Below are positions 14,156-57,386 of a stretch of 64,000 nt of DNA, piece by piece (positions within the stretch are counted from its first letter, which is position 1; the number at the start of each line of letters is the position of its first letter). The notes under the pieces were generated by a model, which ran no database searches, was not told where the DNA came from, and worked only from the letters and a program-made list of their open reading frames with translations. The stretch comes from Theileria orientalis strain Shintoku (Eukaryota > Apicomplexa > Aconoidasida > Piroplasmida > Theileriidae). Where the stretch lies: assembly GCF_000740895.1 (NCBI RefSeq), contig NC_025261.1:1674001-1738000 (forward strand), read 5' to 3'. The position numbers and the translations under genes are program-made.

Positions 14156-19329
<5,174 letters not shown>

Positions 19330-30836: not shown

Positions 30837-33800
30837 ATGCTTATATACAGACAGTTGTTGTATATAACGGCGCTAGCCGGGTATGTGTTTGGGTCGGACG
30901 TCAAATTGGACCTCTCAAGTACCGAGACGAACCAATTTGATGTCGCCAAATTGGAAAACGGCGAGTTTGAGACTACAAGAATAACGCCTAAGCACGGAAT
31001 AGAAGTGAAAGAGATACACGACGCTTCTAACGAGCTATGGTCACCTTTGTCGACCGATTTCTTCATGAAGTCGCTCGAAATCCACCAAAGGTCAGGCCAC
31101 GACGACTTGGGCCACTTGGTAGTCTGGAAGCCGAACCAAGAAGTATACCAAGCAAGTAAATCGCAATTAAACGAACGCAAAACAACAGTTTTTATACCAT
31201 ATAAAGTAAATAACCTCTTTTTCAAGAAGAAGGACAGGGTGTGGTTCCCATTGACACAATACCATTACGAAGTCCTAAAAAGCGATATGTCTTCTCGAGA
31301 TTCAGTGTTAGATTTAGATAACTTTGGGGGATGCAATGTGTCTGTAAATTATCTGTCCCACAGAGTTACTAAATACAAGCTTGTGCCAAAACACATGACG
31401 AGAATCTTGAGAGTTATACACAGAGACGACGTGCTCTGGAAGTCACAGGCAGAGCAGATGGTGAAGTCAGTGTATCTCTCATACAATAAGACGGGAGAAA
31501 TGGCACTGGTGAGCCTGAACCTGTCGGCGCCAAACGCGACCTACGACCCACTGGACGAGAAATCAAAGCGCTACTATTTGGATTCTCTGAGATACTACAG
31601 TAAAATGGGCAGAGGAAGCTGGGTCGAGGTGGGCCAGGACGAGTACGAGTACCAGATGAGCCTCCTGAGGAAGACCGCAGAGACTCAGGAAGTGAAGGTG
31701 CAGTTTGACCTGTCAAAAATGCCAGCCTCAGCAATCACGTTCACGAAGAACGAGTACTCCGCCAGAGGAATGGAAGTTACCTCGTACGCAATAAACGAAG
31801 GATTTAAGCTGAACCTGGTGAAGGATGGCCCACACACACTATGGTCATCCAGCGTCAACTCAGTGAAGGACCTGTGCGTGTACAACCTGGGCTCTAAGCG
31901 TGTCCTGGACCTGAGAGTGACGAAAGACTACGGACTCGAGACGAAGAGTGACTACCTGCTCTTCAAGAAGGAGGAACAGGGGCAGTGGGAAAAGCTGCCG
32001 GCAGAAGAGTACAAGTACCTCCTGTACTCGGGCGAGATACCGCTGGTGCTGGACATGGACGCCTCGGACTACCAGTACATGACGATCATAGGATACAAGG
32101 AGGACGGAGTGCCAGTGAGGATGATGAAGCCATTCAACGGATACCACTTCAACAAGGTGGTGCAGTCAGGAGCTCTTGTATGGGAGAGCAGGAGAATGCA
32201 GAGGTGCAGAAAGGCGCTGATATTCAACTACTCGAGGGACGGAAGAGCGACGAGCATGCACTACACACCGGACAGTGACACTGAGTGGACAGGGAACGAG
32301 TTCGCAGCGCTGCTCCTGGACGACCTGCTCAAGGGGAAGTCCTACGAGGCGTACTTCCGCAAGGCGGTGAGCACAGTGTACGACGAGACCTCGGGCAAGC
32401 AGGAGTCGGCAGGAGTCACCTGGGTGGAGATGACTGAAGCTGAGTACCAGGCGTCGTTCGCGTCACTGCAGCTGAAGATGTCGTTCTCGCTGGACCTGGA
32501 CACGCTGCCCTCAGCGTTCTACTACGAAGAACTGCCATCAAGCGGCGCTAGGTCGCCGCTTGATGGCGAGTCTGCGAAAGAAGACGCAGATCCCAAGACC
32601 AAAAGCAACTGGCCAGCAGTTGACGAGGTCCTCGCATCTAGAGGGATGGCACAGAGTAACCACAGAGACTACATAGTCTCGAAGTACGACTACAAGGGAG
32701 TGAAGAAGGTGTCACTGACGCCGAAGTTCAACAAGAACCTGACGAAGGTGGTGGAGGGCTCGGAAGTCATCTGGGAGAAGAAGAAGGGCTGCAACTGCCT
32801 CTCAGTGACCTTCAACAACGCACCGCAGCCGACGCTGCTGACAGTGTCCTCGACGAACGCAAACAAGGCGATAGTGCAGGCGAACTACTACTACAGAAAC
32901 CAGGGAAAGTGGGAAGAAGTAACCTTGAGCAGATACAGTGACCTGATGGAAGCGATGGCGGAAGTGGAAGACCACAAGTACTTCACAGTTAACCTGAAGA
33001 AACTGGGACCGACGAACAAGTACACGTACAACGTGATATACGAAGACGTACCCTACGCACAAATATTCCCGAACTTTGGATATCAAATGAGGAACCTGGT
33101 GGAAGGCGAGGAGCTTATATGGAGTCTGAATAACCCGAACGGAAAAGGATACGAAAACCTGTCCAGAGCAGACCTGACGCCATACAAGGACCCGAAGTTC
33201 GTGAAGTTGGCATCCACCACAGCAGACGTGGAGATAACGACGAGCTACTACGTAAAGGAAGAAGTTGTTGGAAGCAAATACGACGTTGATGATACCACAC
33301 AAGACGTTGATGCTAGCACAGATGACGTTGATTCTAGCACAGATGACGTTGATGCTAGCACAGATGACGTTGATTCTAGCACAGATGACGTTGATTCTAG
33401 CACAGATGACGTTGATTCTAGCAAATACGCAACACTAAAGGACAAGTGGAAGAATGTGGAAGTGGAGGAGTACTACAGTAAGCTGGAGAAGTTTAAGTCG
33501 GAGTACTGCAGCAGAGAGGAGGTGGTGGACCTGTGGGACGTGTACATGGGCCTGGAGCGCGACTACTACGAGTACGAAAAGAGGGACTACCTGGGTGTGC
33601 CGAAGTTTGGAGTGCTCACCTTTAAGGCGAGAGTGGAAAACCTGACGCTGAGTCTGAAGGAACAGAAGATATGGAAGGTGCCGAACACGAGGTACGCAAA
33701 GGAGGTGCTCTTCTTCCCGGCAGATGCGCCGACCTCAGTGGCAGTGCTCTACGACGACCACGACGAATACTTCCTCAGAGGAGGAGACGCAGGCCTCAAT

Positions 33801-36800
33801 GGAAGTGCCCAGTTCCCCAACACGGGGTCGGACAACTTCGTGGACACAGGAAGCGGCTTCGCGAAGGTGGACCACGAGGAGATGGTGAGGTCCTTTGAAA
33901 AGTACGTGAGCCCGAAGAGGGAAGTGGAGTTGGACCTGGGCGAGTACTACGACATGGTGAGCGAGTTCGAGGAGGAGTCAATAGAGACCTCAGGAACCGG
34001 GGCACCAAAGGGAGTGTACATGGAAAACGAAAAGGAAGGAGAAGGAGAAGGAGAAGCATTCACGCTGGGCAGCTTCAGCACTCTGAAGAGCAAGGACGCA
34101 AACGGAAACACAACGGTATTGGGCCTGGAGGCGTCGCTGAGTCCGAATGCAGAGGCGAAGAAGCAGAGCAGTGTGGGAAGAGATGCCTCATTCGACAGCG
34201 ATTCGGATGAATTTGATCTTGTGGACAATGATGGATCTGCAACCAGTAACGATAAGGTAGCCGTTGACAATAAGGTAACTGGTGACCAATCGGGACGCAC
34301 GAACGAATCGGTAACCGGTAACGAGTCCATAAATGGTGACAATAACATAACTGGTAACGAAACGTTAACTGGTAACGAATTAGCAACCGGTGACAATAAG
34401 GTAACAGGTAACGAATTAGCAACCGGTGACAATAAGGTAATGGGCAACGCAGCACTCGAGAAGGCAGGCGAGGCGCTGAGAAGAGCGACTGACGTGTCAG
34501 AGGCCTCAACTGAGAAGCTGAAGAAGATGGACCACAGGATCAGGCTGCGGAGCTACCTGGTGTCGAAGCTCCTGGAAAAGTACCCGTACACGACGCTGGG
34601 AGATAACGACTTCAACTGGTCAGTGTGGAACTACAGAGGAGTGGATTTCATAACACTCTCGCTGAACCCGAAGATGGTGCTGAAAGAGATAGTGGACAGA
34701 GACCAGAAGGTGACGACGTGCAAGATTTTCGACTCAGTGAAGGTATACTTCACACTGACAGATGAGCTAAGTCTGCTGGTGTACCACAGAACATTTGAAT
34801 CAAGTGACATGAAGATGCTGGCGTTCACCAAGGGAGAAGGGAAGTCGTGGTCGATTGCGCCATCAGCGCTCACGCACAGTCTGAGGACGCTGGTGAACTT
34901 CGCGTCGAGGCCGCTCTCAGTGGACCTGTACCACCTGTCGGACCACTGGTCCAAGAGAGGATTCAAAACGTACAGGTACGGAGCGTCGCAGTACCTGAAG
35001 CACAACGTGCTGGTGGCGAGCCCAGGATACCAGATACGCGAGGTCTACTACAGGTCGAAGCTGTTATACGAAGTGAACTCTGCGGACGCGGCGTACAGCA
35101 TGACGAGAACAGTCACAGAAGTAAGTGCGGGTTTCCGAAGCAACGCACAACTTAATACGGGTTTGCCTGATAAGTCGCAAAGTAGCACCGGTTGCGCAAA
35201 TAACGCACAAACTGGCACAGTGTTTGGAGGAAGAGAACCGATGCAGTCGGAGAACGAAGGCAGAGCCTCGGAGAGCATACTGCGAGTGAACTACTACCCG
35301 AACTTGCGCCCAAGGCTAGTGCACATAGCACTGTTGACGGCCTCAGGAGTGTCCAACAAGTACTACTCAGTGAGCAGCACGAGAGGCCCCGCGAATGGGA
35401 GTGGCGAGTCGCTCCTAGATGGGGATTTGGCCGCCAGTTTCGACTCTGGATCAGCTGTCGACGGTGATTTGGGTTACGATGCCAACACTTACACAACGAA
35501 CAATGCTAACACTTACACAAATGGCAACTCTAACTCCTACACAAATGGCAACTCTAACTCCTACACAAATGGCAACTCTAACTCCTACACAAATGGCAAC
35601 GCAAGGACTGAGCCGGTGACCACAGTGAAGAGTGTGGACATATTCGATTACTCGAGACTGTACGAGGAGTACGGGAGAATTAACGAGTGCAGCCTGGACG
35701 TGAGAGAAGCGAACAAGACGGAGGAGTACAGAGCGTTCACGGAAATGGTTAACGGCACAGAGTACACGCTGGTGAAGCCGAAGAAAGAAAGTACACTGGT
35801 GCTCGTGACAGACGGGCAGAAGGTACTCTGGGAAGCAGAGGAAGAAAAGGTGTCGTCAGTAGTGCTGTACCCGAAGGAAAGTCCGAAGTTGGTGCTCATA
35901 TACTGCGAAGAAACTCCAGTACACGCAGAGTTTAGTAGTACAGAGGCGACAGTACAGAAGGTAATAAGGCTCAAGTACAGCGAAAGCGTGCACGACTGGA
36001 AACAGGTAACGGAAGAAGAAGCACTGGAGACAGTTAACATGGCGAAGAGAGCGCTGAAGCCGTTCAACCTGGACCTGGACGGGCTGCACACGGAGCTTAT
36101 GAACCCGCGCAAATGGTACCACCTGGAAAGAAACTACCTGTTCGGAATGGCGTTCACAACGATAAGGCCGTCAAGCTACTCGGACATCGTGAAGGTGAAG
36201 TTTAAAAAGCAAGTGCTGTTCAACATAAGAGACACGTACGCACTATACGAAGAGGGAGAGAGCCCTGCCGACGCAAAATCTATATCGCATAACCAAGATT
36301 TCGGGTCGGAAATCGAGGGCACGACCCGCGGAAACAGAGTGCTAAACGTGGTCTACGGCTTCGGAGAGGAGCCGAAGATGGCAAGAGTGACGTACCTGAA
36401 GAACTTTGAAGTGCTCGACGCGTACTTCATGAGGCGCGACGAGGAGTGGGAGGAGATCACGCAGCCTGAGTTCGGAAGGTACCTGTACCTGCTGAAGAGA
36501 CTGAGTCTGGCGCCAGCAGTGCTGGACGTGGAGAACCCGGACCCGGTGATGTTCGAGACGACGGAGTTCGTGCACGGAGGAGACAGCGCGCCGAGCACCC
36601 TTATGGTGAGAATGACGCCGAGAGAAAAGTACCACGTGACGAAGGTGGTGAGCAGCGTGAGCGAGTTCGTGCGAGACTTAGACGACATGCAGAGCACGGA
36701 AACGCTGGACTACACGAACACGCTCTTCGCAGCGGAAGGGTCCAGCGTGGTGTACGCGGAGAAGACGAAGACGAGGCCGACGCTGCTGAGAGTGTACTTC

Positions 36801-48800: not shown

Positions 48801-51800
48801 GAGGTGATGGCGGTGCACCAGAACGACGCGAGCGGCAGCTTCTACAAGTACTTCATGAAGAGGGACGGCCAGTGGTACCTGCCGCTCGTGAACCCGCCGA
48901 GCTACTACAGGATGCGGCGCTGCCTCGAGGTCGCGGAGGCTGAGCGGTTCGAGGCGACGGGCGTCGCGCACTGCACTGCCCCCCCTAGTTACGGTGCTGC
49001 CCAGTTCGCTGGTACTGCCAACGTTACCGGTACTGCCCAGGTTGTGGGTACTGCCCAGGTTAAACCGGCTGGTACTACCAAGGTTACGGGTACTACCGGC
49101 AATCTTGCCACACCTGTCGACACTGCCCAGGTTGTCACAACTACCGGCAACCAAATGGTCACCACGGACAATCTTACGACGGACCCAGTAAAGTGCGACA
49201 AGTTCGACCTCGACCTGGCCAAACACCACGAGTCAAACGAGTACTACTCGTACTGGAGAGCCATGTACTTCCACGGACACGAGTACGCAGTGCTCAGAGT
49301 GAGACAGCACAAGGTGTTGAACCGTGTGAGGGACGGCGACCTGTTGGTATGGAGTCAGCACAAGGACCACTACGCAACTGAACTTGGCCTGCTGCCGCCA
49401 GAAAAACCGACGCACGTGTGCGTGGGCGAGTATCACCAAAAAGACCACACAGTCAAGTACAAGTTCCTATACAAGTCGGCAGGAGAGTGGCACGAGTACG
49501 CATCCAGAGATAGGGTGCCGCTGCAGCTGGTGTACTTGAGCGAGTTGAACTTCAACCACGTGTCGGAGTTGAGCCACGGAAACTTCACGCTTCACCTGAA
49601 CGAGGAGAACAAGACCACGGAAATGTACCGCTTCGAAGAGGTCAAGGTCGACTCTTTCAAGATGGCCTGGGGGCTGGTAAACAAGGGCTACAACCTGGAC
49701 GAGGTGTTGGCGGCCGTTGGCGCCGGCAAGGGAGCACCGGAAGCCTCAAGGGGCAGAGCCACGGAAACAGTGTTCAAGAATGAGAAGAACAGGCAAGTGC
49801 TGAGGTTCGCGTACACGCCAGTGCAAGACCCAGTGGCTTTCGGATGCTCATACGTGTTGGACGGGGAGACCCACTACGAGTTGTACGAGAAGGCGTCAGA
49901 AGGGTGGAACCCAATGTACACGATCTCGTACCTGAGAACGGCACTCGCGTACGCGCTGTCGGACGAGTACCACGAGGAGTACGTGAGGAATAACTGGAAG
50001 GAATTGACGCTGGAATTGTCGGAGAAGCGACTGGAGCAAGTAGAATTTGGGGTTACCACTCGTACTGGTGTTACCGCTGTTACCGGTCCCACAGTTGCTA
50101 CCGCTCGTACTGGTGTTACCGCTGTTACCGACGCCAAACATACTACCGACGCAAAGCAATTAGTCAACGAGTTCGCAGATCAAATGAGGACGGAGCGACT
50201 AGAAGAGGCAGCAGGTGCAACGAAGCACGTGACGTCGGTGCCGGTGCAGAAGGTGGTCTTCGACCTGCACTTTGACCTGTTGAACGAGTTCTACAGGCAC
50301 CGCTACGACCAGGAGCTGACGGTGGTGGGCGGCCTGACCTTCGTGACGTTCGTGCCGAAGGAAGGAGTGTCAGTGAGAGAGGTGATGTACCCGTTCGTGT
50401 CAGTGTACAGCCTCCCGACCGAGGAGACGCTGAATAAGATATCCGTGTACCCGCGAGACGAGCCTGAGTTGCTGCTGCTGCACCTGACGTACGCAGAAAC
50501 TCCCTCGCATTACGACTTTGCAGACCACCTATCGGGAGGCGCGTTATTGGATGTGGTGAATGCCAACTCACATAACGTGAATGTCAACCCACATAACGTG
50601 AACAACAAACCGCTAAACGTGGTAAGAAAGTTTGTGTTGGTCAAGGGAGAGAAGGAGGAAGATAACAGATGGGTGCTGAGCGAGGAGAAGTTTGACAGGA
50701 AAGTGGAGGACCACGCAGCAGAGCTGATGGCGCCAGAGCTCGAAGAGGCGACCTTGGATCTGTCGAAGCTGATGAACCTGGAAGGCTCAGAAGAGTACGA
50801 CGTGGTGAGAGACACGATCAAAGACACAGTGGATGTGCTGACAGTGTACACGAGAGCAGTGACAACGAAGGTGACGGAAGGAGATAATGTGGTGTGGGAA
50901 GCGGAGAAGGGACAGAGGCTGGATTCACTGTACATAATGCCAGTGGAGGACCCAGAGTTGCTGTCACTGGCATCCACGTCAAAGAGCCTCAGCTACTACG
51001 CAAGGCACGGAGGAAAGTGGGAGAGCGTGACGAGAGAAGCATTCTACTACATATCCTCCTACTACGTGACGGCAAGGCACACGCTGGACCTGAAGTACGT
51101 GACGGAGTACGACGAGGAGCTGAGTCCAGAGGACTACGAGCTGGAGCACAGCAAGGGGTACCCGGAAGAGTCACACCACCGTCTGAGCGAAGAGGACTCG
51201 GTGGTGAGTCAGACGTTCTCAATGCTGAGACAGTCGGCATTCGGAGAAGCAAGGAGCATGTTCGCAGAAGGCGACGAGGAGATGTCAGTGAAGTACACGA
51301 AGACGAGGTACCACGAGTACCTGGAGACGGGCGTGCTGAAGAGCGACAACAGGCTGTTCGGACTGGTGTACCCGAAGGAGGGCGTCGACAACAGCCTGAC
51401 GGTGCTGAAGCACAACGGAGACGTGATATACAGGCTCGCGGAAAACGAGAAGCTGGAGCAAGTGAACTACTACTCCTTCGACAGCCCAGTGCTGGTCTCG
51501 GTGGTGCTGCGCGTGGAAGTGGAGCCTCTGGAGGACCGTTCAGAGGCTGGAGCTAGGTGCCCTGCGATCACCTGTGGCACGAGTGCCAAGCGCGGTGCAG
51601 GAGCGGAGTGGGCGACGAGCGCAGAGCTAGGCGTGCACTGCACGTGTGCTTCGGACGTGTCGGACTCTGAGTGCGCGCTGCACCCACCGGCTGCGAGCGC
51701 TCAACACGGTGTGACAACGGGTGAACACGTGGCAAGCGGCACCCCTGACCATTTGACAACGGCCACCAGTGCTGCCGATGACGACGATTTTAAATCGTAC

Positions 51801-54800
51801 ACGATGATGCTCTACTTCGTCAGAGGAGCATACAGAAATGAGAGGAGGTGGCACCAAGTGGACGAGGAGCACTATAACACGGCACTGGAGCTGAACGAGT
51901 ACTCGAACAAAAAGGGCCTGGGCCTGATGTTCGGAAAGGAAGTGTACGTGCGAGAACGCGCAGTGCCGCGAGAAAGGGAGTTTAGCTTCGAGTTGGAAGC
52001 AGCCACGAGGATAACGAGCGAATACTACCTGAGGAGAATGTCGCAGTCAGGAGACTACTACGCGCTGGTGGTAAACCTGGGCCATAGAATGAAGGAGGTG
52101 ACAGAGGGCGGAGAGGCAGTGTTCAGGCCGCAGGAAGGAGAGGTGATAATAGACCTGTACTACGCGAAGGAGGCGGAAGCAAGCAGTTTGACAGTGAAGT
52201 GCGTGAAGGAGGAGGACGGAGTGACATACATGGAGTTCTTGCACATGGAGAAGGAAGGAGGCGCCTGGGCGAAGAAGGACGAGATCAGGGTGCCAGTGGA
52301 AACGATAGAAGTGCACGAGGCGACGCTGGCAACGCTGGCGACGAAGAGTGAGCGCACGTCGTTCGATTTCGACATAGCGAACTACGAGGAGACGTCGCCA
52401 GAAGAGGACAGCGGCAAAGAAAACAGGGGATACAAGGTGACTAAAATTAAAGGGAGCACTGAAGACATACTGGTGTTCGTCAACGAAGGCCACAGAATGG
52501 AGAGGCTGCTGGAAGGAGAAAACCTGCTGTACGAGGCGCCAGAAGAGTACGAGATCAAGTCGCTCCTGTTCACGCCACCGAAAGAGCCGAAGTTCCTGTC
52601 AATGAGGTACACAGACTGGGAGAAGAAGGGACTCGGGCACTACGCGTACTTTGAGAAGGAAGGAGGACTCTGGGAGCTGAAGAAGGTGCTGAGGGTGGCG
52701 CAGTCGGAAAGTACACCGAAGCACGAGATGGCGTTAGAAGAGTACAGCAAGGAGCACTACGAAGAAGACAAGAAGGCGCAGCCGGAGGAAAGGTCGTTTG
52801 CAGAAAAATTGGCAGAAGCATACAAGGCGTTGGCAAAGGCAGATAAGTCATTGATAATGACAATGGGACAGGGAGATAACGAGGCGGCAGCAAAAGTAAC
52901 CAAGTCGCGCAGAGATAGGGCACGTCAAGAGGAAGACAAGGTAATACCAGAGGCAAGTAGCGCCAATGTAAAAGTAGAAGGCGCCTATGTTACAGGTGCA
53001 TTTGACATGTACGGAGAAAAGGGAGTGGACTTTGACGACATCACAATAATTGACGGAAGAGAAGGGGAAGAAAGGGAACCAGTGGCGCAGGGAGAGAGGG
53101 CACTGGGAGGATTGGAAGACATGAAGAAGTTCGACTTTGACCTGAGAAGCGCGAAGACCGGAGAAACGGAGGACTACCTGCTGCTGGTGCAGAAGATGCC
53201 GCCAATTGAAACGGCGCTGCTCACGCCGAAGGAAAAGAGAAGGCTCGCGAGGCTGCACGATGGAGAAGAGACAGTGTGGACGTCGCCAGAAGATAGGCTC
53301 TGCAGACAGATGATGTTCGCGCCCTTCGAGAGGCCAGTGTTCGTGGGTCTGGCGACGGACAAGGGAGAAGGGTCGAACCCTCTGGACATGGAGTACACCT
53401 TCGTCCAGAAGGTGCGAGACGGAAAGTGGAGAGAGTGTAGAATCCCGTTCGTCAAGAGCAAGGAGACCCTGCCGCCGTGCGACCCGCGCTACTTCAGGAC
53501 GATGAAGCTGGACGTGGCAGGCCTGGTGGACCTGTCCCTGGGTAACAGAGACAGAGCCGCGATGGCGCCAGGAAGCGGCGTCGCCAAGGCCTACTACGCA
53601 GTGCCGAAGGACGTGATCGTCAACACGGTCTGCGACGGAGAGACCACGCTCTTCACGTCCCCAGTGATGAGCGTGGAGAAGGTGAAGGTGTACGCGACGC
53701 CGACGGACCTGTTCCTGGCGCTGACGACGGAGTTCGCGGACAACATGACCACGCACTACTACAGGTCGTCGCTGCTGGGCGAGGACGTTAGCGGTCAGAC
53801 CGGTTTGGCGTCTAGGGGGGTTCCGGACAGAGGCACGCTGGACGGGGTCACGGCGGTGGCCGGCGCCCCAGAGGCTGAGCAGCGGCCCGTGGACACGTCG
53901 TCGCCGCTGAGCAAGTACAGCGTGGCCTACGCGCTCAAGAGGCCGGGCCAAGGTGCTAGTGTCAACCCCAGCCTCGACCCTAGTCTGAGCGCCATGCTCG
54001 ACGCTAGCAGTACCTCAAACGCCAACATAAACGCCAGCAATACCACAGACGCCAACCTGAACGCCAACGCTAGCATGAACGCGTTCCTGCAAGACCACGC
54101 GCTAAGGTCGTTCGACTTTGACCTCAGCGCGGACAATCACTCGACGAAGCACTACAAGGTGAGAGTGACCGAGGGAGCGCACCCTGCAGTCGTGGTCGAG
54201 GTGAAGAGGTCAAGCGTGCTGGAGCGCCTGTACGACGACCACCTCCTGCTCTGGAAGAAGTCGAAGCAGAAGCACGTCAAGCTCGTGACGAAGTTCGCGT
54301 ACCTGCCGCCGAAGCACCCGAGTCACCTGTGCATGGGGCTGTACCACGTGTACGACCACAAGGTGAAGTACACGTTCTTCTACAAGTCGGGCAGAGTCTG
54401 GCACAGGTACAGGCCGGAAGAGGCGCTGCCGAATGGACTGTTCCTGGCCTTCAAGTCGATGAGAGGCGAAGCGCGCGCCGACGGCGGTTTGGCGCAGTCA
54501 GCCCATACAACTGTGGCAGCTGATGCGAGTGTAGCTTCTGTCACCGTAGCAACCGATGCGAGTGTAGCTTCTGTCACCGTAGCAACCGATGCGAGTGTAG
54601 CTTCTGCCACCGCGCCAAAATCAGCCGATAGTGTAGTCGCAACACAATCAAGCCTAGTACAGGAAACAAGCCGGGTAAGATCAGCCTTCGACTACGACCT
54701 ATCGGTGAGGAACCAGTCGACGCAGGACTACGAAGTCAACGTATACCAGTACCACGGCAACGAGACGCTGGCAGTGGTGACGCCGAAGCCGAGAGGAAAC

Positions 54801-57272
54801 CTGCACGCAGTGGTCGACGGAGAGGCGACGGTGTGGTCGAACGACGGAACGAAGAAGTTCATGGTATTCGCATACCTGCCATCAGACAGGCCTCAGCACT
54901 TCGCACTGAGGTTCTACGTGGAGACGCCGACGGACTACAGCGACGTGTACATGGACAAGTACCAGGGCCGCTGGATCCCGTCGTACACGCCGAGCAACAG
55001 ATTCCTGGACGAAAGCATCTTCCCGGAGGAGGCGTTGGAGGGCTATGGCGATGCCGACGACCTTACCTTGGGTGAGTCCAGCGCCCACTGCTCTGCGCCC
55101 GTCGCCCCCGTTGCGTCAACTAGTGGCGGTGCTAGTGCCCCTAAAGACACGGCCGGTATGGCCAAGGGCGCTGGTGCCAACGTTACCGGTGACCGGGGTG
55201 TCACGCCTGCGTCGTTGAACACAGTGGTCCAGTGCGCCAAGTTCGACTTTGACCTCGCCAAGGACAACCACTGCACTGACATGTACAGCGTCCACCACCT
55301 GACGCACCACGGCTACAAGCTGACTCTGGTCAAGGTGAAGGAGCACAACATGTTGATGCACCTGGTAGACGGAGACCACAAGGTGTGGACCAACGGCGGC
55401 CACCAGGTCGTGTTCAAGTTTGCGTTTTTGCCACCTAAGGAGCCTAGGGAGCTGTTCATGAGTGTGTACTGCATGGCGAGTCACAAGAAGTACCACCTCT
55501 TTTTGTACAAGGAGCACGGCGAGTGGAAGCGGCACCCCTACCCCCACGAGGTGCCGGAGAGGGCGAGGGCGCTCTCGGAGGTCCTCAGGATGTCGCACTT
55601 CAGCTTCAACCTGCGCGAAAAACCCACAGCCTCGTACAACAAGTACCGCATGGACTTCGACAACAAGGCGCTCCTGGAGCTCGACGAGTCGACGTACCTG
55701 GACGCAGTGTTCGACGGAGACACCATGGTGTGGACGAACCACGGAAGCAAGAAGGTGAAGGCGATGGTGTACTATCCGCTGAGTGAGCCGGCGCACGTGG
55801 CGCTGTCATACACGAGGGACGACGATGGGCCCTTCTTCGAGTACATGGAAAAGGTAAACGGGAAGTGGAAGCACGAGTTGACGCCGCAGAGTCTGAAGCA
55901 GATGCTCAACTCGACGCTGTCGCAGTCGAATGGCCCTGACGGGTCGAGCCCTGCTCCGAAGACTAGACAGGCGCCCTTGAAGGCAGGAAGGACGTGGACG
56001 AGGATCGACACGGCCGAGTTCTACAACAAGTTCATGCACGTGGCAGTCACGGGAACTTTCTCGAAGCTGGACCTGGGCACTAGGCCCGACGAGGGCATGT
56101 ACGAGGTGAAGGACGGCTTCGTGTACGGAAAGCCAATCAGAGTGTACAACCCGCTGCCAGGAAACCACGTCTACAGAATAACCAAGGGAAATGCGACGGT
56201 GTGGTCGTTCCTGGAGTTCAACGACCACGTGAAGTCGGTGCTGGCAGTCTACGATAAAATTGACGAGGAGGCAGACCCGAGGCTGCTGCAGGTGTACATA
56301 AAGAACAGAAACACAATCAGAGCACGCTACTTCAAGTGCAAGAGTAGCAAGCGCTGGGTGGAGGTGTCGGAGAAGGAGTACGCGCGGCTCTACAGGACAG
56401 TCATGCAAATATTCAACGGCGCAGTGACTGAGGAGAGCGCAGGCGACTACTGGGAGCACGAGTCGGCGGACAGCGAGGACGACTACGAAGCGAGCACGGC
56501 AGCAACCACCGACACTGAGGACCCGAGAGCATTCATAGGCTCCGAGGACCCGAGTCTGTGCAAGGTCGAGTACCAGAGTCTGTTCGACCGAATGGGCGAG
56601 ATGGCGAGGGACCTGAAGGAGTACGTGGAGTCGAAGTACGCCAAATACGCGGGTGTGGCCAAACCCAAGGTAGACACGCAGGAAGATACCACCACGTCTG
56701 CACCTGATGATACCGACGTGACTAAGCAGAAGGTAGACACGCAGAAATACGTAGAGCCGGGCATAGAGACGAAGGTTGACACGGACGAGAAGGTCGCCGG
56801 AGAACAAGCACACCCGCTGAACAAATTCCCCCAAGTAAATGGAGGTGAGTCTATAAGAGTTAATGTGATGAGAAACGATGGAACAACGAGCGAAGTGAAG
56901 TTGGGGTGCGACAACCGCCTGTACGCGCACCTGGTGGACAACGCGACGATATACGTGCCAGTGGAAGGAGACGAGATGGTGAAGGTGAAGCAGGACAACT
57001 ACGTGTTCTACTCACTCGAGTACGCAACGAAGAAGGCCCAGGCAGTGACGACGGAAGGACACGACGGAATTGTGACGAAGCTGATAGTGTCAGTGGAGAA
57101 CGGGGAGGCGATGAAGCACATAGGATTCGCGCTCATCAACGGAGCCTGGGAATCCTACGACGTCGAAGGAACAGAGCGCGAGTCTCTGGAGAAGGAAGTA
57201 GAGCGCGCGAAGATAAAGTCGAGCTCTCTGGACTTTAGACAGAGGTACCTGCGGACTCTGACGGCCAACTGA
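30837..57272 (+). CDS. Giant secreted multi-FAINT (DUF529) repeat protein, 8811 residues
   Basis: One uninterrupted frame of 26.4 kb. It begins with a signal peptide (MLIYRQLLYITALAGYVFG, likely cleaved before SDVKLDLSS). There is no transmembrane helix or GPI-type tail at the C-terminus (FRQRYLRTLTAN), so a soluble secreted product is predicted. The body is made of about 45 FAINT-like units counted by eye. Each has a start of the type F-D-L/F-D-L, a Tyr-rich strand, a turn of the type V-x-D/E-G-x-x-x-V-W, a hydrophobic strand with P at its end, and Y-x-x-x-x-G-x-W. Ser/Thr/Asn/Gly-rich linkers, many made of tandem repeats, separate them. FAINT proteins of Theileria are exported, many into the infected host cell, and their molecular roles are mostly unknown. 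Two cassette pairs are near-identical (44075/48959 and 43705/55231). The expected mass is near 1 MDa. Processing into fragments is possible but not visible. Confidence 0.9.
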   Translation: MLIYRQLLYITALAGYVFGSDVKLDLSSTETNQFDVAKLENGEFETTRITPKHGIEVKEIHDASNELWSPLSTDFFMKSLEIHQRSGHDDLGHLVVWKPNQEVYQASKSQLNERKTTVFIPYKVNNLFFKKKDRVWFPLTQYHYEVLKSDMSSRDSVLDLDNFGGCNVSVNYLSHRVTKYKLVPKHMTRILRVIHRDDVLWKSQAEQMVKSVYLSYNKTGEMALVSLNLSAPNATYDPLDEKSKRYYLDSLRYYSKMGRGSWVEVGQDEYEYQMSLLRKTAETQEVKVQFDLSKMPASAITFTKNEYSARGMEVTSYAINEGFKLNLVKDGPHTLWSSSVNSVKDLCVYNLGSKRVLDLRVTKDYGLETKSDYLLFKKEEQGQWEKLPAEEYKYLLYSGEIPLVLDMDASDYQYMTIIGYKEDGVPVRMMKPFNGYHFNKVVQSGALVWESRRMQRCRKALIFNYSRDGRATSMHYTPDSDTEWTGNEFAALLLDDLLKGKSYEAYFRKAVSTVYDETSGKQESAGVTWVEMTEAEYQASFASLQLKMSFSLDLDTLPSAFYYEELPSSGARSPLDGESAKEDADPKTKSNWPAVDEVLASRGMAQSNHRDYIVSKYDYKGVKKVSLTPKFNKNLTKVVEGSEVIWEKKKGCNCLSVTFNNAPQPTLLTVSSTNANKAIVQANYYYRNQGKWEEVTLSRYSDLMEAMAEVEDHKYFTVNLKKLGPTNKYTYNVIYEDVPYAQIFPNFGYQMRNLVEGEELIWSLNNPNGKGYENLSRADLTPYKDPKFVKLASTTADVEITTSYYVKEEVVGSKYDVDDTTQDVDASTDDVDSSTDDVDASTDDVDSSTDDVDSSTDDVDSSKYATLKDKWKNVEVEEYYSKLEKFKSEYCSREEVVDLWDVYMGLERDYYEYEKRDYLGVPKFGVLTFKARVENLTLSLKEQKIWKVPNTRYAKEVLFFPADAPTSVAVLYDDHDEYFLRGGDAGLNGSAQFPNTGSDNFVDTGSGFAKVDHEEMVRSFEKYVSPKREVELDLGEYYDMVSEFEEESIETSGTGAPKGVYMENEKEGEGEGEAFTLGSFSTLKSKDANGNTTVLGLEASLSPNAEAKKQSSVGRDASFDSDSDEFDLVDNDGSATSNDKVAVDNKVTGDQSGRTNESVTGNESINGDNNITGNETLTGNELATGDNKVTGNELATGDNKVMGNAALEKAGEALRRATDVSEASTEKLKKMDHRIRLRSYLVSKLLEKYPYTTLGDNDFNWSVWNYRGVDFITLSLNPKMVLKEIVDRDQKVTTCKIFDSVKVYFTLTDELSLLVYHRTFESSDMKMLAFTKGEGKSWSIAPSALTHSLRTLVNFASRPLSVDLYHLSDHWSKRGFKTYRYGASQYLKHNVLVASPGYQIREVYYRSKLLYEVNSADAAYSMTRTVTEVSAGFRSNAQLNTGLPDKSQSSTGCANNAQTGTVFGGREPMQSENEGRASESILRVNYYPNLRPRLVHIALLTASGVSNKYYSVSSTRGPANGSGESLLDGDLAASFDSGSAVDGDLGYDANTYTTNNANTYTNGNSNSYTNGNSNSYTNGNSNSYTNGNARTEPVTTVKSVDIFDYSRLYEEYGRINECSLDVREANKTEEYRAFTEMVNGTEYTLVKPKKESTLVLVTDGQKVLWEAEEEKVSSVVLYPKESPKLVLIYCEETPVHAEFSSTEATVQKVIRLKYSESVHDWKQVTEEEALETVNMAKRALKPFNLDLDGLHTELMNPRKWYHLERNYLFGMAFTTIRPSSYSDIVKVKFKKQVLFNIRDTYALYEEGESPADAKSISHNQDFGSEIEGTTRGNRVLNVVYGFGEEPKMARVTYLKNFEVLDAYFMRRDEEWEEITQPEFGRYLYLLKRLSLAPAVLDVENPDPVMFETTEFVHGGDSAPSTLMVRMTPREKYHVTKVVSSVSEFVRDLDDMQSTETLDYTNTLFAAEGSSVVYAEKTKTRPTLLRVYFVKKDDFLQLGKAHFVKGGLEAAARMRERQKASKAEFVEYLLTRRRYLGDLYEGQQEYQQITEFEYEKLLNRAGLTTYNLDAHYREINRTVQLHPFHTNNYTDDVQSVYTGNVNFVHPKSDLDRLMCRDKLVWESTIDEQGLLVATYPANSPKQAMVKALDHRSSKLSARYYAYENGEWVQKSTEENKVQNDSEDEGDSKSGHASGTTSFGLSLKELALKHFGLGKTTAGSEHEGSAGRLKVDVNDRSLHLKLNSFTFMEDQVYTTVVVPAEGAKVAGVYDKGVEIWAPKRRSASPSTSTSSLAGGSTLASSLPGGSTLSGSSSSLGDGPTSTEMPTNTATTETTAHSASGESAPLDDLVVVDPAEASQSLGADYSSALGESGEQAAGDAMDDLVVVDPADRKAPSSVSASASANVTAGHAASSTRTGDNNSTGQTRTGDTTQALTGTTAAHGGDKSLNKDTGYREPPKVVKQALEEEELMKLYFTPSVNPSVLVVYYRDLEGIVRVKDYEKRWAVWEEAHAKFMANYINMLESSLTVNVSELFVEAPVNVKKDNPEGEARGPLGKGDTEIEIKDPATKEENVEKMNEELTVTERLVERLANMSIAEDGSDIEVSDPAASGSVGNVAGGGDAVTRNATGTKNTGSNATVSAQGAKRAVAHMSLELKAKFDKNKIALTSYSISGFQVTTLTPKGSYNFTKVYANNRKGQAELIWQSAAEERCFIMHFAPKVDPKVVLLSYSTKSAFIETKMFFKDRANGWVHDAESDYQEFLKKMLELEDAFVYHLEDTLSGLPNENYTYEETEIAQVKFRTCTPRLNRHLVTIMDRHGHVYERAEGERVLDVLSSPPQNPHFLLVLYTVDGGEEVKYKYFNKPAKSPSSDGELSRYNYRNTWRQVGRYDFMRLLNEQVKASQARELEDGVEVLDRELSLSEVQAKLLERLNGLRRAEAERETDEEAHERVLRKFAQGAADPTAFDAHGPKVERHPETATGGGDSFKPLTETSDSAKPADANTDSAKQVHTTDRLDKANTLHTANTLDKANTLHTANLQEQLTDSLSTADTLEVTGFAQESVEFLDQMSGFGPLEKYKEFDLDLSVLSSMNSLAGTEYRRNDYVEAGVQRTVLRLRKNNLLKQVKQGSEVVWDATSARSTGSQYSEHSKGRRDATNSTWYYNKSEDTVTQGESGSQGESASKGKEGTRLGTFGKNGQSVVTYVYFAPTNDPRVLTLFFGDEGHGVTSMKFIKGTSWIQYPYVTKDPVNEKALLEATNNVVLDVEWEPLIFRNITVFKKVLLKDGEAYHMKISMKETLKKVVKVVYGEKTLWEKKGDEEFKATYLYPVSKPKFVRVDVSTREGDRREYYRYYSEAWFQLKENFYQSSLERYYKHLSTDFLEVNMSEVEQYRRKTAFYKVYTKNLYDLDFTLLAPNHSYQFSSVVYRPEKHVDLTGTGGARSASGGGKAVDGAFTDVPFVDDEAFSGHGATQGQSSHDLVGEKADADLKKLYETTVNEFMGMAGFAPKEDPKFLILTTYSWANLLEQEGGDYSYFTGDVSDLMDQQGREVNKQVYLSVTTNYYYKEEGEWYMADAHSFMERCKRYAHDNMEPEAMFDVDLDNLEFNRDKYELKKEEFCDTIFTGLGPKKGYKIGHVYQYGKIVYRVGPYPIREMLFYPETKARFLKFSHQMSEKLVNNYFFLSYEPFGLYQKDYPSFRAELYEYNRKKKSLGGLLEEDGLSEEDDINVVDARGHVSTGGVSAGGYPTGYTGGYPTGYASGYTGGYASGYTGGVSAGTLVSTDSKGQVVAGERAEGTEASGAPQGNAPRRTGRSQPTLVLYGHSEKLFEARGEKNTASKAPAHSFLYHVDTERTATTAYSCEYAKEAPEFQRAVRVFTGKMCGLMYYIVVPVNGFTVTQVFSETKSLLNAHEGTKVKAVVAVPSTNPIYLLVWHEEEPAETNWSLYHLSGNVWKELRHFPLRLKMSNIAKYHLAKVYPDRFSGASLPQAKVDSGAATTTVMPATTTFTQPTTSLTGSPVATAVAPAAQATLTSPTGSAGSVAPATAATPATQPSTTQATTGQTDTQPTTGQTDTQPTTGQTDTQPTTGQTDTQPTTGQTDTQPTTGQTDTQPTTGQTDTQPTTGQTDTQPTTGQTDTQPTTGQTDTPRSVMPIEPLRSLFKTEQSPAGDRFLMHGYPQGPEHFKEKFGFKYDFFNFSQVDVMDQDDVFRKLDFYTEAEDAYKLVLMDYDEYKVDRLTVNEKTVFQLPDEDFFDIVDARSGSAPGPQVAHDLANTRPLATTTGQKAGTKDTLTTDPVKCAKFDFDLAKDNHCTDMYSVHHLTHHGYKLTLVKVKEHNMLMHLVDGDHKVWTNGGHQVVFKFAFLPPKEPRELFMSVYCMASHKKYHLFLYKEHGEWKRHPYPHEAPEHLRELVDPASTIYEGVAHCTAPPSYGAAQFAGTANVTGTAQVVGTAQVKPAGTTKVTGTTGNLATPVDTAQVVTTTGNQMVTTDNLTTDPVKCDKFDLDLAKHHESNEYYSYWRAMYFHGHEYAVLRVRQHKVLNRVRDGDLPVWSQHKDHYATELGLLPPEKPTHVCVGEYHQKDHTVKYKFLYKSEGEWHEYFAHHLVPESMLNVAKFLASGASTDSALKTDLKHNKSKFDTVKAVVLSPKERPYKLSVVYSEGIHDRYASFLKVNGQWAPVTLPMSDDLTLRMRYLGAKLRSESIVFAGEYPYAVDVNTKMLKYKYGTFVHNSVVSSKWLATHSPEEGHLVYLPINNFKLLRVSFGKHKLFKYNFNTKRVTAVYLTRAENWKETARSNEVERVTVFALDKEDRKYRASWKKKGDKWVMTHVPTEEVMKMLNNIRKAKEMLPKTTEKRERKEAEANKAFENFMDYTASEGTLNTANRFTLSGKVERKDGALTVNAYFNYRIELNEMEVFLSSLKTQFFNYAVLEEWYNYNIVVVPEGYKATVLKHLGSVVFDSRQLAANTDSVNTAVNTNAANTDAGINTNADNTNSNSNNNTSANTNTDNKANNNTTDKSRDEYFIKAVYLTPASNPYRVYLYLKNGKGESKYKYLWKSAVTVPSTTENTTEFVTVSTRYEWLSANMTETVLAYVKAKFTNALDASESLKVSCYKYDLKVAANGDVRRSHTEESFSTGSASGSMFGGSADTVRYGGDTVLSTSSSGKVGTSADSEFEDQFSGDPIVRSVSGHSAKGVGRGSASVFATRTANDYTTEYTIASPGKSTSGLTSGCTSDCVITGTVPGLTTYKQLQKFDYYVNLDSMYANMSYKGMFSYIEEDFKVLVPYKDNKVSHVTFGVEKLFTLKSQFDTVKALLLTPPSNPRNLIVYYVDEEGNDHYAAYTKMNPLLYYCNGTFGTMERLFKLGIGVSGSNVSGSNVSGSNVSGSNAERTWQLDPDAVDTALGTTAGTTQGTKMGYDILNDIYDTGRTGVDSTFNDSYAHGNSSTSDYSYARSNSTFNQGYGRSSNAGRQSHKRFEGVKRQWFERPFFGSHATAIRRIHAALDKYYKLYPHAEGVTTVGQRDGEGRGKGDFVPDVYCMELYVSGKLYDLKKGAIYDFFYYYDDKNKDLLRVFVDDEIVHVPGVLEVVVREGKPTSFLFITAKVSAAASLMVSSIVYGSQEVMEVSDQLVVLGLLVSPLSDPKAMLVHAKNFSGRDLYYYFVKKDNHWVTPESDHYSFLKMKVLMEGARAELSAAPSDSAATLRRKEGVDGMASGTMAWPEGLPVGRTMSSGVYPQEAKNMDVYMSGTLVDGETVAPFVYVYNARKVGSAHVMERGKIVEHKNVFAVEAEDTQYRTVFALKPKHKEYKVRTLHVSRERVFEVDARETVNMVAWTPFANPKSVMVSVTTATGGTRHNFYAKKGNAWTLCTEDWQLSSLVHEFDISEADAADDASSLSMVEKVNYDLYLTGLVEYDNFVYVFDKDSLDSLFVLKGEKLELVRNAVEYKVNETINVLFVWPQLPRYVVTNVVSSSGVLLEVDRNSMLVALLLSPPYDPEVMAVHQNDASGSFYKYFMKRDGQWYLPLVNPPSYYRMRRCLEVAEAERFEATGVAHCTAPPSYGAAQFAGTANVTGTAQVVGTAQVKPAGTTKVTGTTGNLATPVDTAQVVTTTGNQMVTTDNLTTDPVKCDKFDLDLAKHHESNEYYSYWRAMYFHGHEYAVLRVRQHKVLNRVRDGDLLVWSQHKDHYATELGLLPPEKPTHVCVGEYHQKDHTVKYKFLYKSAGEWHEYASRDRVPLQLVYLSELNFNHVSELSHGNFTLHLNEENKTTEMYRFEEVKVDSFKMAWGLVNKGYNLDEVLAAVGAGKGAPEASRGRATETVFKNEKNRQVLRFAYTPVQDPVAFGCSYVLDGETHYELYEKASEGWNPMYTISYLRTALAYALSDEYHEEYVRNNWKELTLELSEKRLEQVEFGVTTRTGVTAVTGPTVATARTGVTAVTDAKHTTDAKQLVNEFADQMRTERLEEAAGATKHVTSVPVQKVVFDLHFDLLNEFYRHRYDQELTVVGGLTFVTFVPKEGVSVREVMYPFVSVYSLPTEETLNKISVYPRDEPELLLLHLTYAETPSHYDFADHLSGGALLDVVNANSHNVNVNPHNVNNKPLNVVRKFVLVKGEKEEDNRWVLSEEKFDRKVEDHAAELMAPELEEATLDLSKLMNLEGSEEYDVVRDTIKDTVDVLTVYTRAVTTKVTEGDNVVWEAEKGQRLDSLYIMPVEDPELLSLASTSKSLSYYARHGGKWESVTREAFYYISSYYVTARHTLDLKYVTEYDEELSPEDYELEHSKGYPEESHHRLSEEDSVVSQTFSMLRQSAFGEARSMFAEGDEEMSVKYTKTRYHEYLETGVLKSDNRLFGLVYPKEGVDNSLTVLKHNGDVIYRLAENEKLEQVNYYSFDSPVLVSVVLRVEVEPLEDRSEAGARCPAITCGTSAKRGAGAEWATSAELGVHCTCASDVSDSECALHPPAASAQHGVTTGEHVASGTPDHLTTATSAADDDDFKSYTMMLYFVRGAYRNERRWHQVDEEHYNTALELNEYSNKKGLGLMFGKEVYVRERAVPREREFSFELEAATRITSEYYLRRMSQSGDYYALVVNLGHRMKEVTEGGEAVFRPQEGEVIIDLYYAKEAEASSLTVKCVKEEDGVTYMEFLHMEKEGGAWAKKDEIRVPVETIEVHEATLATLATKSERTSFDFDIANYEETSPEEDSGKENRGYKVTKIKGSTEDILVFVNEGHRMERLLEGENLLYEAPEEYEIKSLLFTPPKEPKFLSMRYTDWEKKGLGHYAYFEKEGGLWELKKVLRVAQSESTPKHEMALEEYSKEHYEEDKKAQPEERSFAEKLAEAYKALAKADKSLIMTMGQGDNEAAAKVTKSRRDRARQEEDKVIPEASSANVKVEGAYVTGAFDMYGEKGVDFDDITIIDGREGEEREPVAQGERALGGLEDMKKFDFDLRSAKTGETEDYLLLVQKMPPIETALLTPKEKRRLARLHDGEETVWTSPEDRLCRQMMFAPFERPVFVGLATDKGEGSNPLDMEYTFVQKVRDGKWRECRIPFVKSKETLPPCDPRYFRTMKLDVAGLVDLSLGNRDRAAMAPGSGVAKAYYAVPKDVIVNTVCDGETTLFTSPVMSVEKVKVYATPTDLFLALTTEFADNMTTHYYRSSLLGEDVSGQTGLASRGVPDRGTLDGVTAVAGAPEAEQRPVDTSSPLSKYSVAYALKRPGQGASVNPSLDPSLSAMLDASSTSNANINASNTTDANLNANASMNAFLQDHALRSFDFDLSADNHSTKHYKVRVTEGAHPAVVVEVKRSSVLERLYDDHLLLWKKSKQKHVKLVTKFAYLPPKHPSHLCMGLYHVYDHKVKYTFFYKSGRVWHRYRPEEALPNGLFLAFKSMRGEARADGGLAQSAHTTVAADASVASVTVATDASVASVTVATDASVASATAPKSADSVVATQSSLVQETSRVRSAFDYDLSVRNQSTQDYEVNVYQYHGNETLAVVTPKPRGNLHAVVDGEATVWSNDGTKKFMVFAYLPSDRPQHFALRFYVETPTDYSDVYMDKYQGRWIPSYTPSNRFLDESIFPEEALEGYGDADDLTLGESSAHCSAPVAPVASTSGGASAPKDTAGMAKGAGANVTGDRGVTPASLNTVVQCAKFDFDLAKDNHCTDMYSVHHLTHHGYKLTLVKVKEHNMLMHLVDGDHKVWTNGGHQVVFKFAFLPPKEPRELFMSVYCMASHKKYHLFLYKEHGEWKRHPYPHEVPERARALSEVLRMSHFSFNLREKPTASYNKYRMDFDNKALLELDESTYLDAVFDGDTMVWTNHGSKKVKAMVYYPLSEPAHVALSYTRDDDGPFFEYMEKVNGKWKHELTPQSLKQMLNSTLSQSNGPDGSSPAPKTRQAPLKAGRTWTRIDTAEFYNKFMHVAVTGTFSKLDLGTRPDEGMYEVKDGFVYGKPIRVYNPLPGNHVYRITKGNATVWSFLEFNDHVKSVLAVYDKIDEEADPRLLQVYIKNRNTIRARYFKCKSSKRWVEVSEKEYARLYRTVMQIFNGAVTEESAGDYWEHESADSEDDYEASTAATTDTEDPRAFIGSEDPSLCKVEYQSLFDRMGEMARDLKEYVESKYAKYAGVAKPKVDTQEDTTTSAPDDTDVTKQKVDTQKYVEPGIETKVDTDEKVAGEQAHPLNKFPQVNGGESIRVNVMRNDGTTSEVKLGCDNRLYAHLVDNATIYVPVEGDEMVKVKQDNYVFYSLEYATKKAQAVTTEGHDGIVTKLIVSVENGEAMKHIGFALINGAWESYDVEGTERESLEKEVERAKIKSSSLDFRQRYLRTLTAN
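33289..33425 (+). repeat. 21-bp in-frame tandem repeat (TDDVDSS / TDDVDAS)
   Basis: About six units of 21 bp encoding an acidic heptapeptide in a linker of the giant FAINT protein. Units alternate Ser and Ala at one position. Confidence 0.9.
34230..34445 (+). repeat. Degenerate TGNE/TGDNKV repeat in a linker
   Basis: Imperfect repeats of ACTGGTAACGAA- and ACCGGTGACAAT-type words encode TGNELATGDNKV variants. The last two units are nearly identical. Confidence 0.8.
35497..35605 (+). repeat. 24-bp in-frame tandem repeat (NSNSYTNG)
   Basis: About four copies of an octapeptide unit, three of them nearly identical at nucleotide level, in a linker of the giant FAINT protein. Confidence 0.9.
39866..39938 (+). 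repeat. 36-bp direct repeat (LDKANTLHTANT)
   Basis: Two adjacent 36-bp copies with a single substitution at the end, in a Thr/Asn/Asp-rich linker. Confidence 0.85.
42030..42140 (+). repeat. Gly/Tyr/Thr-rich repeat (GGYPTGYT, GGYASGYT)
   Basis: Repeated 24-bp-type units in two sequence flavours inside a linker of the giant protein. It is bounded on both sides by the same GGVSAG word. Confidence 0.85.
42990..43252 (+). repeat. 27-bp minisatellite, ten in-frame copies (TTGQTDTQP)
   Basis: Ten consecutive nonapeptide units. The 27-bp units are almost perfectly identical (ACGACAGGTCAGACGGATAC plus CCAACCT), with one A/T difference in the first. It lies in a Thr/Pro/Ala-rich, possibly O-glycosylated linker. 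Confidence 0.95.
43705..44025 (+). repeat. FAINT cassette B, copy 1 (321 bp)
   Basis: Base-for-base identical, as far as I can read, to 55231-55551. It encodes a complete FAINT unit from KFDFDLAKDNHCTDMY to EWKRHPYPHE. Sequence on both sides is unrelated. Confidence 0.92.
44075..44615 (+). repeat. Linker plus FAINT cassette A, copy 1 (541 bp)
   Basis: Matches 48959-49499 with four substitutions. It encodes a Gly/Thr/Val/Ala linker (AQVVGTAQVKPAGTTKV) and a FAINT unit (KFDLDLAKHHESNEYYSYWR) up to SxGEWHEY. Confidence 0.92.
46912..46977 (+). repeat. 15-bp tandem repeat (VSGSN), four copies
   Basis: Four identical pentapeptide units written GTCAGCGGTAGCAAC in a linker of the giant FAINT protein. 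Confidence 0.92.
48959..49499 (+). repeat. Linker plus FAINT cassette A, copy 2 (541 bp)
   Basis: Copy of 44075-44615, 4884 bp downstream. The differences I see are two adjacent bases changing Pro to Leu, one silent, and one Glu to Ala. Confidence 0.92.
54529..54612 (+). repeat. 33-bp tandem repeat (ATDASVASVTV)
   Basis: Nearly three units of an undecapeptide repeat in the linker between two FAINT units. The last unit is diverged. Confidence 0.88.
55231..55551 (+). repeat. FAINT cassette B, copy 2 (321 bp)
   Basis: Identical copy of 43705-44025, 11.5 kb downstream in the same frame. It is preceded and followed by unrelated linker or FAINT sequence. Confidence 0.92.
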
Positions 57273-57290
57273 AGGCGACGTGTCAATGGC

Positions 57291-57343
57291 TAGTAGCGAG
57301 TTGTAGCCACAAATACTAGTAGCGAGTTGTAGCCACAAATACT
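57291..57343 (+). repeat. 26-bp direct repeat after the giant gene
   Basis: Two adjacent copies of AGTAGCGAGTTGTAGCCACA plus AATACT, 20 bp downstream of the FAINT stop codon. Non-coding. Confidence 0.9.
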
Positions 57344-57386
57344 TGTCGGAAGCAGTACGATATAGAAGATAGGCACCAGGCGATGT

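What the first reader, a model, noticed from the sequence alone, without database searches (positions are those of the whole stretch)
30837..57272. A single-exon, 8811-codon secreted FAINT protein
The sequence shows one continuous frame of 26.4 kb with a signal peptide, about 45 FAINT-like units and no membrane anchor. FAINT proteins described in Theileria usually have one to a few such units (family knowledge). A near-megadalton secreted repeat protein would be an outlier and might act as a scaffold, a filament, a surface coat, or a polyprotein processed into many effectors. The neighbouring genes have many introns; this one has none.
Basis: partly seen in the sequence, partly recalled or inferred. 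Interest (0 to 1): 0.85.

Follow-up and report, generated by a model that had tools for sequence, protein, structure and literature searches.

The report
Giant secreted FAINT-repeat protein of Theileria
A cattle blood parasite carries one uninterrupted 26-kilobase gene for a nearly one-megadalton, probably secreted protein built from about forty copies of the parasite-specific FAINT domain, and two far-apart pairs of these copies are kept nearly identical within each strain although they differ between strains.

Summary
The frame is real: 30837-57272 (+), 8811 codons, no internal stop, 988 kDa, coding signal in 172 of 174 windows. The genome is Theileria orientalis Shintoku. The gene is already annotated as TOT_020000802 and its 26,436 bp equals the longest gene in a published table, but the deposited protein has 7144 residues because 18 in-frame stretches (1667 residues) were called introns. 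All 18 are stop-free multiples of three with exon-like GC, and 1086 of the 1667 residues align to the Fish Creek (Chitose) orthologue MACJ_001635 (7801 aa), so the single-exon reading is better supported. A unit profile finds 41 FAINT units at E<1e-3 (42 at <0.01, 46 at <0.1); its controls give none at E<0.01. One unit is predicted as a nine-strand beta domain (pLDDT 92). In 38 of 42 units the best match is the same position in Fish Creek. The four exceptions form two distant pairs, 94-99% identical within each genotype but 68-77% between genotypes: intragenic concerted evolution, apparently unreported. Function is inferred: a secreted, multivalent scaffold at the host-parasite interface, working like Babesia SBP3. 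The polyprotein idea gains little support; expression and location are untested.

The parts
30837..57272 (+). Single open frame, 8811 codons plus stop, 988 kDa (TOT_020000802 re-read without introns)
   Evidence: matches P0002 and P0003
30837..30896 (+). Probable signal peptide (about residues 1-20)
   Evidence: hydrophobic N-terminus, first 30 residues identical in Fish Creek; no dedicated predictor run
30909..56363 (+). Array of 42 FAINT units (E<0.01), first at residues 25-136, last at 8412-8509, median start-to-start 188 residues
43705..44032 (+). Homogenised unit pair A, copy 1 (residues 4290-4399), 99.4% identical DNA to copy 2
55231..55558 (+). Homogenised unit pair A, copy 2 (residues 8132-8241)
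44075..44615 (+). Homogenised unit pair B, copy 1 (residues 4413-4593, upstream linker plus unit), 99.3% identical DNA to copy 2
48959..49499 (+). Homogenised unit pair B, copy 2 (residues 6041-6221)
42981..43252 (+). 27-base tandem array, 10.1 copies, in frame (9-residue repeat), inside a linker; the surrounding stretch 4012-4147 aligns to Fish Creek for only 26 of 136 residues
33282..33423 (+). 21-base tandem array, 6.8 copies, acidic linker
33978..34538 (+). One of 18 in-frame stretches left out of the deposited protein as an intron; 108 of 187 residues align to Fish Creek protein
37710..38225 (+). Another such stretch; 100 of 172 residues align to Fish Creek protein
52347..53093 (+). Largest such stretch, 249 residues, 216 align to Fish Creek protein; contains a FAINT unit (residues 7194-7280)

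Best explanation
This is one intact gene for a giant, modular, probably secreted protein of T. orientalis. Shown: the frame is open and coding; it holds about 42 FAINT units separated by variable linkers (median 96 residues); the unit order is the same in the Ikeda-type strain Shintoku and the Chitose-type strain Fish Creek; and two distant pairs of units are homogenised within each of these strains. Inferred: the chain passes the secretory route by its signal peptide, is stored in and released from spherical bodies or similar organelles, and acts in the infected host cell or at the parasite surface as a soluble beads-on-a-string scaffold. Each beta-domain unit offers a ligand surface, and the many divergent units together cross-link host or parasite partners with high avidity. 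The homogenised pairs are inferred to be maintained by repeated gene conversion inside the gene, starting from two unit duplications older than the split of the genotypes.
For: Open and coding. Same gene deposited as TOT_020000802, orthologue MACJ_001635 on Fish Creek chromosome 2; 7701 aligned residues, 67.3% identical. Published longest gene 26,436 bp in Shintoku, 23,559 in Fish Creek, 25,877 in Goon Nure (PMC9323827 table). 18 of 18 removed stretches are multiples of three, with GT and AG within 6 bases of the expected ends, GC 0.46-0.69 against a mean intron GC of 34.12%. Units with controls and two-way cross-validation (14 and 17 units found at E<1e-3 by a model trained on the other half). 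Units are better conserved than linkers between strains: 72% identity with 3770 of 3951 residues aligned, against 62% with 3931 of 4860. One-to-one unit orthology 38 of 42. Pairs: DNA 99.3% over 541 and 99.4% over 328 bases with sharp edges, exact tracts of 125 and 108 residues in Fish Creek, no further copy found in the genome. Compact beta fold, pLDDT 92.2, pTM 0.84. By analogy, BoSBP3-like (signal peptide, three FAINT domains, intronless, no TM or GPI) is secreted from spherical bodies into the infected erythrocyte (PMC5870374 passages).
Against: No transcript, peptide or localisation data were seen. In the published table the longest exon is shorter than the longest gene in all three strains (11,241, 16,092 and 25,364 against 26,436, 23,559 and 25,877 bp), so annotators placed introns or other breaks there; if MACJ_001635 is the Fish Creek entry, its gene is 153 bp longer than its coding length. 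The SBP3 analogy is loose: the cysteine-rich region of SBP3 is absent (cysteine 0.6%). Ligand binding by FAINT units is unproven; in p104 the FAINT part is not what binds EB1 (PMC3649978 passage). The predicted unit has no clear structural match that would suggest a ligand. The between-strain identity of the paired units (0.70-0.76) lies inside the range of the other units (0.60-0.91), so their divergence alone is not unusual.
Confidence: 0.5

Rival explanations
1. Multi-exon gene: the 18 stretches are real introns and the protein is the deposited 7144-residue form.
For: That is the deposited model; each stretch has GT and AG near its ends; longest exon 11,241 bp in the published table.
Against: 18 of 18 lengths are multiples of three, and the 1667 codons hold no stop; GC is exon-like; 1086 of 1667 residues align to Fish Creek protein residues, 528 identical (summed by hand; three short or repetitive stretches align poorly); one stretch contains a FAINT unit, residues 7194-7280. 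A gene finder working in an open frame would pick such false introns.
Confidence: 0.1
2. Secreted polyprotein, cut in the linkers into many FAINT effectors.
For: Linkers are long, variable and low-complexity in places. RxLx[EDQ] motifs are more frequent in linkers than in shuffles (8 against 2.7 +/- 1.6). Dibasic sites occur in 24 of 43 linkers. SBP3 of B. bovis gave several bands in Western blots, read by the authors as possible processing or degradation (PMC7561165 passage).
Against: Dibasic sites are at chance level (52 against 51.4 +/- 6.9) and equally frequent in number inside units (49); RxLx[EDQ] occurs in only 6 of 43 linkers, and there are 9 such sites in the Shintoku frame against 5 in Fish Creek.
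Confidence: 0.12
3. Surface or extracellular adhesin or decoy antigen, whose size and paired units serve immune evasion through recombination between units.
For: Linker length variation and strain-specific sequence in the homogenised pairs.
Against: No anchor seen; 38 of 42 units are stable one-to-one orthologues, unlike a reshuffling antigen; no donor copies elsewhere found.
Confidence: 0.18
4. Assembly artefact: neighbouring FAINT genes falsely joined, or the near-identical pairs copied by the assembler.
For: Two near-identical tracts of 328 and 541 bases lie inside the frame.
Against: The independent Fish Creek assembly has the same order and the same two pairs with different sequence; the Shintoku copies differ at 2 and 4 bases, so they are not one copy used twice.
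Confidence: 0.03

Closest known systems
TOT_020000802 (T. orientalis Shintoku) and MACJ_001635 (T. orientalis Fish Creek)
   Same: The same gene and its orthologue; N-terminus, unit order and unit pairs shared
   Different: Deposited Shintoku protein lacks 1667 residues called introns; the two are named only uncharacterized or hypothetical
FAINT-domain proteins (PF04385, DUF529) of Theileria
   Same: Pfam gathering score passed; several units per protein; the giant's unit profile also finds units in 27 other frames of the loci examined
   Different: 8811 aa and about 42 units; next longest FAINT frame among 150 scored hits 3239 aa. T. equi has 560 PF04385 hits in 271 proteins (PMC3505731 passage)
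Babesia spherical body protein 3 (SBP3, BoSBP3-like)
   Same: Signal peptide, FAINT domains, no TM or GPI anchor, intronless gene (PMC5870374 passages)
   Different: 1079 aa, three FAINT domains, cysteine-rich region; the giant has 0.6% cysteine
Theileria p104
   Same: Protein with a signal peptide and several FAINT domains (PMC3649978 passages)
   Different: p104 has an SxIP EB1-binding motif and a predicted GPI anchor; neither was seen in the giant

Membership tests
FAINT (PF04385) | Score above Pfam gathering threshold | tested here: met
   134.7 and 105.7 bits for the two overlapping halves against 20.7
FAINT (PF04385) | Repeated units along the chain | tested here: met
   41/42/46 units at E<1e-3/0.01/0.1, controls 0/0/at most 1
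Babesia SBP3-type spherical body protein | Signal peptide, FAINT domains, no TM, single exon | tested here: inconclusive
   Frame, hydrophobicity and N-terminus fit; no signal-peptide predictor and no cDNA
Babesia SBP3-type spherical body protein | Cysteine-rich region | tested here: not met
   Cysteine is 0.6% of the chain, 29 in linkers and 23 in units; local clusters were not scanned for
Babesia SBP3-type spherical body protein | Spherical body location and release into erythrocyte | not testable with these tools
   No localisation data
SVSP (subtelomeric variable secreted protein) | Subtelomeric position | tested here: not met
   C2:1704837-1731272 of a 2,216,979-base contig, about 486 kb from its nearer end
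SVSP | Glutamine- and proline-rich composition (feature recalled) | tested here: not met
   Q 2.6%, P 3.9%
p104 | SxIP motif | tested here: not met
   0 in linkers and 0 in units
TashAT/TpHN | AT-hook or Tash_PEST domain beside FAINT | tested here: inconclusive
   Pfam scan at E<=1 lists FAINT and two weak matches far below their cut-offs; short AT-hooks can be missed

The most novel reading that the evidence does not exclude
A near-megadalton secreted cable whose two distant pairs of FAINT modules are kept matched by gene conversion inside one gene, so that the protein carries strain-specific but internally identical binding modules at fixed positions. Such matched modules could let it bridge identical ligands, for example to nucleate ordered assemblies in the infected red cell such as the intra-erythrocytic bars or veils described for this species (recalled; my one paper search for them gave no usable passage).
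Probability: 0.12. Interest if true: 0.85.

Novelty: new variant of a known kind. Interest (0 to 1): 0.55.

Why it matters
FAINT domains occur in more than a hundred proteins per Theileria genome (142 in Shintoku, PMC9323827 passage; 166 in T. annulata, PMC2826314 passage), yet Pfam lists them as a domain of unknown function and no solved chain matched by sequence. This gene is an extreme natural display of the domain: its diverged copies alone give an alignment good enough for a confident fold prediction. The gene-model question matters for proteomics, since 1667 residues are missing from the deposited protein. The homogenised pairs offer a simple test of intragenic gene conversion in a piroplasm, and raise the question why only two of the many possible unit pairs are kept alike in two genotypes.

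Tried and rejected
Outside relatives: three protein searches. Residues 1-5000 with candidates sized to the whole frame gave only P0002 and P0003 among 2074 candidates; residues 1-2800 (7978 candidates scored) and a C-terminal piece of 771 residues (7995 scored) gave nothing at E<=0.001. In some searches the candidates were capped, and all three searches need shared 5-residue words, so orthologues in T. parva or T. annulata are not excluded.

Hold-out model: a profile trained only on other FAINT genes drifted to 242 positions and found 7 (E<1e-3) or 20 (E<0.1) units in the giant, against 0 and at most 1 in controls. It supports membership but not the count, and its 23 and 22 matches in two other frames were not borne out by the giant's profile (none and 1). 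The first self-trained model also drifted in length, so counts are taken from the compact model. In cross-validation the C-half model had one block-shuffle match at 0.0033.

GC-biased conversion: unit GC3 correlates with within-gene similarity (Spearman 0.54), but this falls to 0.23 (0.20 without the four pair members) after allowing for position and length, so I do not claim it.

Literature: TOT_020000802 in 0 papers; Theileria with FAINT and megadalton gave 3 papers, none seen to describe such a protein (listing for two; passages of PMC7561165); Theileria with gene conversion and intragenic gave 1 unrelated paper. Only open-access papers are held; the Shintoku genome paper was not. Bars and veils: no passage found. 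An arbitrary AT-rich DNA pattern search led nowhere.

Full report
What is there. The frame at 30837-57272 (+) is open from ATG to stop: 8811 residues, 988 kDa, pI 5.5, no ambiguous base. Third-position GC is 0.72. GC is 0.51-0.59 in all 12 2-kb bins that lie wholly inside the frame, and below 0.45 in 14 of the 18 bins that lie wholly outside; the other four are 0.47, 0.50, 0.50 and 0.61. By a codon model trained on one half and tested on the other, the annotated frame wins 172 of 174 windows; the two exceptions overlap the in-frame 27-base tandem array. With the frame's own positional composition the chance of no stop in 8811 codons is about 10^-154.

Which gene. The window lies in a 9,010,364-base assembly of 6 contigs, on a contig of 2,216,979 bases; both numbers equal those of T. 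orientalis Shintoku and its chromosome 2 in PMC9323827 (passages). The table there gives a longest Shintoku gene of 26,436 bp, exactly this length. The protein search returns TOT_020000802 of Shintoku (7144 aa) and MACJ_001635 on a 2,233,854-base contig, the length of Fish Creek chromosome 2 (7801 aa). The table's longest genes in Fish Creek (23,559 bp) and Goon Nure (25,877 bp) are of similar size; that these entries are the orthologues is inference.

Introns. The deposited 7144-residue protein equals the frame minus 18 stretches totalling 1667 residues, apart from two residues, one in each of two matched blocks. All 18 lengths are multiples of three, none holds a stop, all have GT and AG within 6 bases of the expected ends, and GC is 0.46-0.69, against a mean intron GC of 34.12% in the published table. 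1086 of the 1667 residues align to the Fish Creek protein, 528 identical (summed by hand). One stretch holds a FAINT unit (residues 7194-7280). I conclude that these introns are probably gene-finder errors. Against this: no RNA data were available, and in the published table the longest exon is shorter than the longest gene in all three strains.

FAINT units. PF04385 passes its threshold in both halves but resolves only 10 stretches at E<=1. A compact profile built from this protein and its orthologue finds 41, 42 and 46 units at E<1e-3, 0.01 and 0.1; reversed and fully shuffled sequences give 0, 0 and 0, block-shuffled 0, 0 and 1. Models trained on one half find 14 units in the N half and 17 in the C half at E<1e-3; one of them had a block-shuffle match at 0.0033. 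A model from other genes only was weaker (7 at E<1e-3). Units are spaced by a median of 188 residues start to start, with linkers of median 96 residues. The same profile finds units in 27 other frames of the loci fetched, among them the next FAINT gene downstream (5 units, L029).

Size in context. Of 426 first-look candidates 150 were scored; the frames they lie in have 94 distinct lengths, median 738, next longest 3239. Whether other long FAINT frames are as densely built is unsettled: the two profiles disagree on the 2687- and 2401-aa frames. By the giant's profile the next richest frames among the loci I chose hold 10 and 9 units (1698 and 1710 aa).

Fold. One unit (30 units of this gene aligned, mean column identity 20%) is predicted as a nine-stranded beta domain with pLDDT 92.2 and pTM 0.84. 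A two-unit model places a short helix between two such domains (pTM 0.67). No PDB chain matches convincingly by sequence or fold.

Concerted evolution. Unit by unit, 38 of 42 have the same-position unit of Fish Creek as best partner among all units of both strains. The four exceptions form two pairs: residues 4290-4399 with 8132-8241 (pair A), and 4413-4593 with 6041-6221 (pair B). In Shintoku DNA the tracts are 99.4% identical over 328 bases and 99.3% over 541 bases, falling to about 25-40% directly outside. In Fish Creek the same two pairs are identical over 108 and 125 residues. Over whole units, pair A is 99% identical within Shintoku and 99% within Fish Creek, pair B 94% and 97%, whereas between strains these units are 68-70% (A) and 72-77% (B) identical. 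That between-strain level is ordinary for this gene: other units range from 0.60 to 0.91. What is unusual is the within-strain identity of the same two pairs in both strains. The upstream linker of pair B is also shared within each strain. One search found no further copy in the genome, though that search is not exhaustive. The simplest account is two duplications older than the genotype split, kept alike since by exchange inside the gene. A link with the gene's high GC is not supported once position and length are allowed for.

How it may work. A conserved N-terminus resembling a signal peptide (first 30 residues identical in the two strains), no hydrophobic C-terminus and FAINT family membership point to secretion. 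The closest tested protein in the passages I saw is BoSBP3-like, an intronless FAINT protein released from spherical bodies into the infected erythrocyte (PMC5870374 passages). I take the giant to be a soluble, multivalent scaffold used in the infected cell or at the parasite surface. This step is inference, and the ligand is unknown. In p104 the EB1-binding part lies outside the FAINT region (PMC3649978 passage), so a FAINT unit should not be assumed to bind microtubule proteins. Polyprotein processing is disfavoured, not excluded: of six patterns tested in 43 linkers, dibasic sites are at chance level and RxLx[EDQ], though above chance, occurs in 6.

Novelty. The gene, its length and its PF04385 content are on record. 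The single-exon reading, the unit count with controls, the predicted fold of its units and the paired homogenisation are not described in what I saw of the papers found (searches; open-access library only; listings and passages, no whole text read). I call it a new variant of a known kind.

Noticed in passing
61946-64000 (+), continuing in L029: The next long frame downstream with a Pfam hit is another FAINT gene (PF04385, 42.9 bits; 717-codon frame with 5 units by the giant's profile).
   Followed up: partly
L012 (2687-aa frame) and L020 (2401-aa frame): Two other long FAINT frames gave 23 and 22 matches with a drifted profile trained on other genes but none and 1 with the giant's profile; they may hold a different FAINT subtype.
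   Followed up: no
57290-57475: Short tandem arrays (26-base, 2.1 copies; 25-base, 3.6 copies) just after the stop codon of the giant gene.
   Followed up: no
P0003 residues 5993-6100: Fish Creek has a cysteine-containing tandem repeat of period 39 residues, not among the twelve longest exact repeats listed for Shintoku.
   Followed up: no
9522-13682 (-): P-type ATPase of the phospholipid-translocating kind (PhoLip_ATPase_C, 121.5 bits); this stretch includes the GC-richest flank bin (0.61).
   Followed up: no
16868-18397 (+): Topoisomerase IV/gyrase A-type domain (PF00521, 81.5 bits), profile positions 243-432 only, probably one exon of a larger gene.
   Followed up: no
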